From: Rhodothermales bacterium
GTDB taxonomy: Bacteria > Bacteroidota > Rhodothermia > Rhodothermales > JANQRZ01
Assembly: GCA_028284265.1 (NCBI GenBank)
Contig: JANQRZ010000004.1
Location: 62,001-126,000, forward strand
DNA: 64,000 bases
Direction of reading: 5' to 3'
The notes beneath the pieces are model-generated. The model searched no databases, was not told the DNA's origin, and saw only the letters and a list, made by a program, of their open reading frames with translations. Position numbers and translations under genes: made by a program. Each line of letters starts with the position of its first letter. Position 1 is the first letter of the stretch. This document shows, one piece after another, positions 8,832 through 8,933 of this stretch.

Positions 8832-8871
8832 GATAACACGTTGGTGTTATCCCGGTAATGCAGCGTTCACA
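8832..8871 (+). promoter_or_regulatory. 11-bp-period array GATAACA/GGTGTTA/GGTAATG/GTTCACA; includes perfect palindrome GATAACACGTTGGTGTTATC (8832..8851)
   Basis: Heptamers start at 8832, 8843, 8854 and 8865; GGTAATG is identical to the fourth unit of the 4172 array; a TACTCTGG -7-like element starts 16 bp after the last unit start (8881), the same spacing as at 4205/4221. Confidence 0.55.
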
Positions 8872-8933
8872 GTAGGGGCGTACTCTGGCAGCCATCAGAA
8901 GTACCTCAGACCGACCTCACTGGGGCACTGCCT

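What the first reader, a model, noticed from the sequence alone, without database searches (positions are those of the whole stretch)
8832..8888. Second array with the same geometry upstream of the phosphoesterase/glycosyltransferase pair
Heptamers GATAACA, GGTGTTA, GGTAATG, GTTCACA start at 8832/8843/8854/8865 (11-bp period). The third is identical to unit 4 of the first array. The last unit starts 16 bp before a -7-like TACTCTGG (8881), exactly the distance between 4205 and the TAAGTTTC at 4221. Matched period, motif and spacing at two adjacent operons argue for one regulator. The first two units also form a perfect palindrome (GATAACAC-GTTG-GTGTTATC).
Basis: seen in the sequence. Interest (0 to 1): 0.8.

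Follow-up and report, generated by a model that had tools for sequence, protein, structure and literature searches.

The report
Phosphate-starvation switch before lipid-recycling genes
The repeated 7-letter words are most likely a "Pho box", the DNA site where the phosphate-starvation regulator PhoB sits to switch on genes that recycle membrane phospholipids; the repeats and their spacing to the promoter are conserved across the bacterial order and beyond, so this is a sound but ordinary kind of control element.

Summary
In detail: four heptamers at an exact 11-bp period (8832/8843/8854/8865), TA of the -7-like octamer at +16 from the last unit, as in the first array (4172-4211, TA 4221). It is not chance. 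A unit matrix trained only on other families ranks these two arrays first and second in the window (36.1 and 24.7; best unrelated site 6.0; none in 2 Mb simulated). Orthologous plcP and TonB-receptor upstream regions show TAAY repeats 11 and 22 bp apart on the coding strand only, and TA at +16 in 20 of 38 arrays. One part fails: the palindrome is not conserved in the sister species and is at chance frequency. The genes give the function: PlcP-type phosphoesterase plus glycosyltransferase (phospholipid-to-glycolipid remodelling), TonB receptor plus lipoprotein whose likely F. johnsoniae counterparts are induced by Pi depletion. The same box precedes a Na/Pi cotransporter, the best PhoB candidate gene, and pstS in several relatives. 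Best reading: PhoB-type Pho boxes over the -33 region at fixed spacing from the Bacteroidota -7 element. Inferred, not shown: that PhoB binds them. Known kind of element; its motif and geometry for this phylum were not found in the papers searched.

The parts
8832..8871 (+). Array 2: four 7-bp half-sites (GATAACA, GGTGTTA, GGTAATG, GTTCACA) at 11-bp period; predicted Pho box of the plcP-glycosyltransferase operon
   Evidence: four-unit array with TA at +16 also in the sister species
8881..8888 (+). TACTCTGG, weak -7-like element (consensus TAnnTTTG), TA exactly 16 bp after the start of the last half-site; predicted TSS about 8893
   Evidence: TAnnTTTG lies at -12 to -5 in flavobacteria (PMC9723704)
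8776..8819 (+). Intrinsic terminator ending the upstream TonB-receptor/lipoprotein operon; separates it from array 2
8934..9746 (+). PlcP-type metallophosphoesterase (270 aa)
   Evidence: PF12850/PF00149; far below the LpxH cut-offs; 50% identical to a Sinorhizobium meliloti relative
9782..10933 (+). Glycosyltransferase (Glyco_trans_1_3, Glyco_tran_28_C), probably glycolipid-forming, 35 bp after plcP
   Evidence: plcP-GT pair recurs across Bacteroidota and in Verrucomicrobia
4172..4211 (+). Array 1: four half-sites GGTAACA, GGTAATA, GCTAACA, GGTAATG at 11-bp period; predicted Pho box of the TonB-receptor operon
   Evidence: conserved in the sister species and another genus of the family (L240, L243)
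4221..4228 (+). TAAGTTTC, -7-like element at +16 from the last half-site; predicted TSS about 4233
4287..7166 (+). TonB-dependent receptor (Plug, CarbopepD_reg_2, OMP_b-brl_3)
   Evidence: the three Pfam domains listed for the Pi-depletion-induced Fjoh_0545 are all present (PMC8115612)
7239..8729 (+). Secreted lipoprotein without Pfam domain, probable counterpart of F. johnsoniae FII
   Evidence: next to plcP in 13 genomes and next to the Na/Pi cotransporter in 6 others; FII:

Best explanation
Both arrays are Pho boxes. Phosphorylated PhoB-family response regulator molecules bind head to tail on direct repeats of the half-site NSTAAYR every 11 bp (one helical turn). The array covers about -61 to -22 and takes the place of the -33 element; its last half-site lies at -28 to -22, 16 bp before the TA of the -7 element, so PhoB can hold RNA polymerase with its main sigma factor there. 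When phosphate runs short this turns on (array 2) plcP and a glycosyltransferase, which split phospholipid head groups off and rebuild the diacylglycerol as sugar lipids, and (array 1) a TonB receptor with a lipoprotein for scavenging phosphorus compounds. Shown here: the repeats, their conservation, strand bias, spacing, gene families and the same box at other phosphate genes. Inferred: that the protein is PhoB (best candidate G000:C23:353157-353939, locus L231, with its kinase), that it activates, and the enzymes' substrates.
For: Half-site periodicity in orthologous upstream regions outside the window's family: TAAY pairs 11 bp apart 16 (plcP) and 33 (TonB receptor) against shuffle means of 0.27 and 0.29, with further peaks at 22 (both) and 33 (receptor), almost none on the other strand. 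TA at +16 in 20 of 38 arrays, at most 3 at any other offset (binomial 4e-23 treating arrays as independent); the matrix was not trained on that position. In 42 plcP upstream regions outside the order, NAnnTTTG sits at +16 in 13, and in 4 at all other offsets together. Same box at the Na/Pi cotransporter: CGTAACA-GGTAACA with TACTTTCG at +16, also in the sister; at the best PhoB candidate gene in the own genome, sister and at the regulator in G003, each with TA at +16; two-unit boxes such as GTTAACAATTTGATAATC before pstS in several relatives. A PhoB-like regulator lies next to the receptor-lipoprotein pair in G003 and of the four own-genome regulators compared is closest to that candidate (52%). 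In F. johnsoniae a TonB receptor, lipoprotein FII, PlcP and a GT28-domain enzyme are Pi-depletion-induced (PMC8115612); predicted Pho boxes at plcP clusters are reported in marine bacteria (PMC4796936).
Against: No binding, expression or TSS data for this organism. Array 2 is degenerate: unit 2 is poor and the -7 octamer is weak. Eight of 46 training upstream regions have no array, mostly plcP of two families. Of the Na/Pi cotransporter genes of other genera, only two have a high-scoring 3-unit chain, and the pstS boxes do not show TA at +16 as a rule. The PhoB candidate scores below the curated PhoB cut-offs (238.7 of 296.2; 210.4 of 270), and the genome has many related regulators. No PstS was found and PhoU matches only weakly, so how phosphate would be sensed is open.
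Confidence: 0.9

Rival explanations
1. The arrays bind another OmpR/PhoB-family response regulator of the genome, for an envelope or nutrient signal other than phosphate.
For: Winged-helix regulators of this family commonly use direct repeats of about 11 bp (own knowledge); the own genome has many matches to the PhoB model (51, including partial ones) and the candidate is below the curated PhoB cut-offs.
Against: The box recurs at pstS of several relatives, the Na/Pi cotransporter, plcP and the PhoB candidate itself, a gene set that phosphate starvation best ties together.
Confidence: 0.07
2. At 8832-8851 the functional element is the palindrome GATAACAC-GTTG-GTGTTATC, an operator for a dimeric repressor.
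For: Perfect 8-bp arms.
Against: Palindromes of this size are at chance frequency in the window (17 against 10-23); the sister species has CGTAATGtgccGTTATTG there, not a palindrome, while the four-unit array persists; other families show direct repeats.
Confidence: 0.02
3. Chance resemblance of short AT-containing words in a GC-rich intergenic region.
For: A simple consensus search finds only slightly more hits than shuffles.
Against: Held-out matrix scores, cross-family periodicity and fixed spacing.
Confidence: 0.01

Closest known systems
PhoB Pho box of Escherichia coli
   Same: Direct repeats recognised head to tail by PhoB, overlapping the -35 region (PMC3348028); 11-bp repeat unit and nearly the same distance to the -10 element, 17 against 16 bp (from own knowledge of phoA and pstS).
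   Different: Half-site NSTAAYR instead of CTGTCAT; stands before the Bacteroidota -7 element TAnnTTTG.
Pho boxes of Bacillus (PhoP), cyanobacteria (SphR) and Streptomyces (PhoP)
   Same: TTAACA/CTTAAC/GTTCAC-type half-sites every 11 bp or so (own knowledge); closest in sequence to the half-sites here.
   Different: Other phyla and promoter context.
plcP-glycosyltransferase operons with predicted Pho boxes in marine bacteria (PMC4796936)
   Same: PlcP plus a glycosyltransferase, predicted PhoB site upstream; plcP induced by P starvation.
   Different: There agt-type or other glycosyltransferases, mostly in Proteobacteria; here a Glyco_trans_1_3/GT28-like enzyme.
Flavobacterium johnsoniae Pi-depletion regulon (PMC8115612)
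   Same: TonB receptor with the same Pfam domains, FII lipoprotein, PlcP and a GT28-domain enzyme all induced by Pi depletion, most of them in the phoBR cluster.
   Different: plcP is an orphan gene there; the term Pho box does not occur in that paper's main text.

Membership tests
Pho box (PhoB/PhoP binding site) | Direct repeats of a half-site at 11-bp period | tested here: met
Pho box (PhoB/PhoP binding site) | Fixed spacing to the -10/-7 element, overlapping the -35/-33 region | tested here: met
   TA at +16 in 20 of 38 arrays and in both window arrays
Pho box (PhoB/PhoP binding site) | Located upstream of phosphate-starvation genes | tested here: met
   plcP-GT, TonB receptor/lipoprotein, Na/Pi cotransporter, PhoB candidate, pstS of several relatives
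Pho box (PhoB/PhoP binding site) | Bound by phosphorylated PhoB; low-phosphate induction | not testable with these tools
   No binding or expression data for this organism; likely counterparts in F. johnsoniae are Pi-depletion-induced (PMC8115612)
PhoB response regulator | Receiver plus OmpR-type DNA-binding domain, next to a PhoR-like kinase | tested here: met
   (PF00072, PF00486; HisKA, HATPase_c); kinase best matches PnpS and PhoR models
PhoB response regulator | Score above the curated PhoB cut-off | tested here: not met
   238.7 of 296.2 (TIGR02154) and 210.4 of 270 (Bacteroides model); none of 21 genomes of the order reaches the first cut-off, so it is called a PhoB candidate only
PlcP phospholipase C | Metallophosphoesterase with invariant metal motifs, relative of rhizobial PlcP, distinct from LpxH | tested here: inconclusive
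   PF12850; motifs DxH, GDxxD, GNHD, GHxH kept; 50% identical over 97% to a S. meliloti protein, not verified to be the characterised one; LpxH models far below cut-off; activity not testable

The most novel reading that the evidence does not exclude
A phylum-wide Bacteroidota/Rhodothermota Pho-box code exists: NSTAAYR repeats every 11 bp ending exactly 16 bp before the TA of the TAnnTTTG -7 element, from which the phosphate regulon of uncultured members can be read, including an unusual Pst-less version in the window's genus that relies on a TonB receptor, lipoprotein and Na/Pi cotransporter.
Probability: 0.6. Interest if true: 0.5.

Novelty: new member of a known kind. Interest (0 to 1): 0.35.

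Why it matters
A defined Pho-box motif with fixed promoter spacing for this group would let anyone list its phosphate regulon from sequence. It ties plcP and its glycosyltransferase (phospholipid saving) to a poorly understood TonB-receptor/lipoprotein pair, and gives the latter a testable role in phosphorus scavenging.

Tried and rejected
Plain consensus search in the window was weak. The genome-wide 3-unit pattern gave 16 hits against 24 for the reversed control: only array 1 matches perfectly; array 2 is too degenerate to be found by pattern alone. The strong array at G000:C14:52374-52413 (-) near ribD has no TA at +16 and no gene downstream on its strand; left unexplained. Palindrome rejected. 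PstS absent in the own genome, PhoU weak, so the classical Pst-PhoU sensing route could not be used as support. The C20 and C17 regulators were considered as alternative PhoB candidates: they are less similar to the regulator beside the receptor-lipoprotein pair in G003. The lipoprotein has no relative of solved structure. Papers: no described Pho-box consensus for Bacteroidota or Rhodothermota found; only open-licence papers were searched.

Full report
Observation. The four heptamers at 8832, 8843, 8854 and 8865 and those of the first array at 4172, 4183, 4194 and 4205 are as described, both with a TA 16 bp after the start of the last unit. The 8-bp palindrome at 8832-8851 is also real as a string, but such palindromes are at chance frequency in the window.

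Surroundings. Array 1 precedes a TonB-dependent receptor (4287-7166) and a secreted lipoprotein without Pfam domain (7239-8729); a terminator at 8776-8819 closes that operon. Array 2 begins 12 bp later and precedes a metallophosphoesterase (8934-9746) and a glycosyltransferase (9782-10933). The phosphoesterase scores far below the LpxH cut-offs (43 of 134 bits, 41 of 190), is 50-60% identical to PlcP-like proteins of Proteobacteria (50% to a Sinorhizobium meliloti protein over 97%, not verified to be the characterised PlcP) and keeps the metal-binding motifs. In a Sphingomonas plasmid the order TonB receptor, phosphoesterase, glycosyltransferase recurs.

Relatives. Among 60 genomes of the order, close homologues of the phosphoesterase occur in about half. 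The lipoprotein gene sits directly next to it in 13 (own included) and next to a Na/Pi cotransporter in 6 others. In one genome (G003) a PhoB-like response regulator follows the receptor and lipoprotein genes.

Repeats in relatives. Upstream regions of plcP and receptor orthologues from other families were compared without the window's family. TAAY words occur 11 bp apart 16 times (26 plcP regions) and 33 times (20 receptor regions); shuffles average 0.3 and never exceed 3; peaks at 22 bp in both sets and at 33 bp in the receptor set follow; the opposite strand shows none of note. An 11-bp unit matrix, seeded with STAAY and trained on these regions only, has its information in positions 0-6 (NSTAAYR) and almost none in the 4-bp spacer. 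TA falls at +16 from the last unit in 20 of 38 arrays, at most 3 at any other offset, although that position was not part of the training. Scored with this matrix, the two window arrays are first and second of the whole window. The sister species carries both boxes and another genus of the family the first (its phosphoesterase gene was not found); in the sister the palindrome is gone, the four units and the +16 TA remain.

Beyond the order. The plcP-glycosyltransferase pair is widespread in Bacteroidota and found in Verrucomicrobia. In 42 non-redundant plcP upstream regions outside the order the 11- and 22-bp peaks persist, and NAnnTTTG stands at +16 in 13 against 4 at all other offsets together, for example Dyadobacter CTTAACT-GATAACC-AATAACA-GTTAATA then AATATTTG (L143). 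TAnnTTTG is the sigma-A -7 element at -12 to -5 in flavobacteria (PMC9723704). This fixes the geometry: last half-site at -28 to -22, array across the -33 region, predicted TSS about 8893 and 4233.

Regulator. The gene set points to phosphate: PlcP with a glycosyltransferase is the known phospholipid-saving response, and predicted Pho boxes have been reported at plcP clusters (PMC4796936). In F. johnsoniae a TonB receptor with the same Pfam domains, the FII lipoprotein, PlcP and a GT28-domain enzyme are strongly induced by Pi depletion and three of the four lie by phoBR (PMC8115612). That the window's genes are their orthologues rests on domain content and gene order, not on a direct sequence comparison. 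In the own genome the box also precedes a Na/Pi cotransporter (CGTAACA-GGTAACA, TACTTTCG at +16) and the best PhoB candidate (CTTAACG-CGTAAAG plus a weak third unit, TACATTCA at +16; the box overlaps the longest open frame, so the true start must lie further in); the box is stronger at the sister's regulator and in G003. In several relatives pstS is preceded by two-unit boxes such as GTTAACAATTTGATAATC, though as a rule not at +16 from a TA. The candidate regulator has receiver and DNA-binding domains and a PhoR/PnpS-like kinase, but stays below the curated PhoB cut-offs; no relative examined reaches the TIGR02154 cut-off either.

Limits. No experiment on this organism exists here. Array 2 is degenerate and would not be found by pattern alone. 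The plcP upstream regions of two families mostly lack the array. The own genome has no recognisable PstS and only a weak PhoU, so sensing is open. The binomial figures treat related sequences as independent and are only indicative.

Verdict. An ordinary kind of element, a Pho box, found at an apt place; the group-specific half-site and the fixed 16-bp spacing to TAnnTTTG are the useful new detail.

Noticed in passing
G000:C14:52374-52413 (-), locus L002 about 1490-1531: ACTAACG-GGTAACA-GGTAACG-GGAAATC at 11-bp period between ribD and a riboflavin-synthase-like gene, on the strand opposite to both and without TA at +16; purpose unclear.
   Followed up: partly
whole own genome (G000) and sister (G001): No PstS-family phosphate-binding protein and only weak PhoU matches, although many other genera of the order have both; the Na/Pi cotransporter carries the box instead.
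   Followed up: partly
window 8776-8819: Strong intrinsic terminator (16 pairs, T run) just before array 2; its stem is conserved in the sister species.
   Followed up: yes
L238 (G003:C95) 1629-8601: Receptor, double-length lipoprotein and PhoB-like regulator genes in a row, with Pho-box-like arrays upstream of the receptor and of the regulator.
   Followed up: partly
window 11307-12020: Small secreted protein with a T9SS-type sorting tail downstream of the operon.
   Followed up: no
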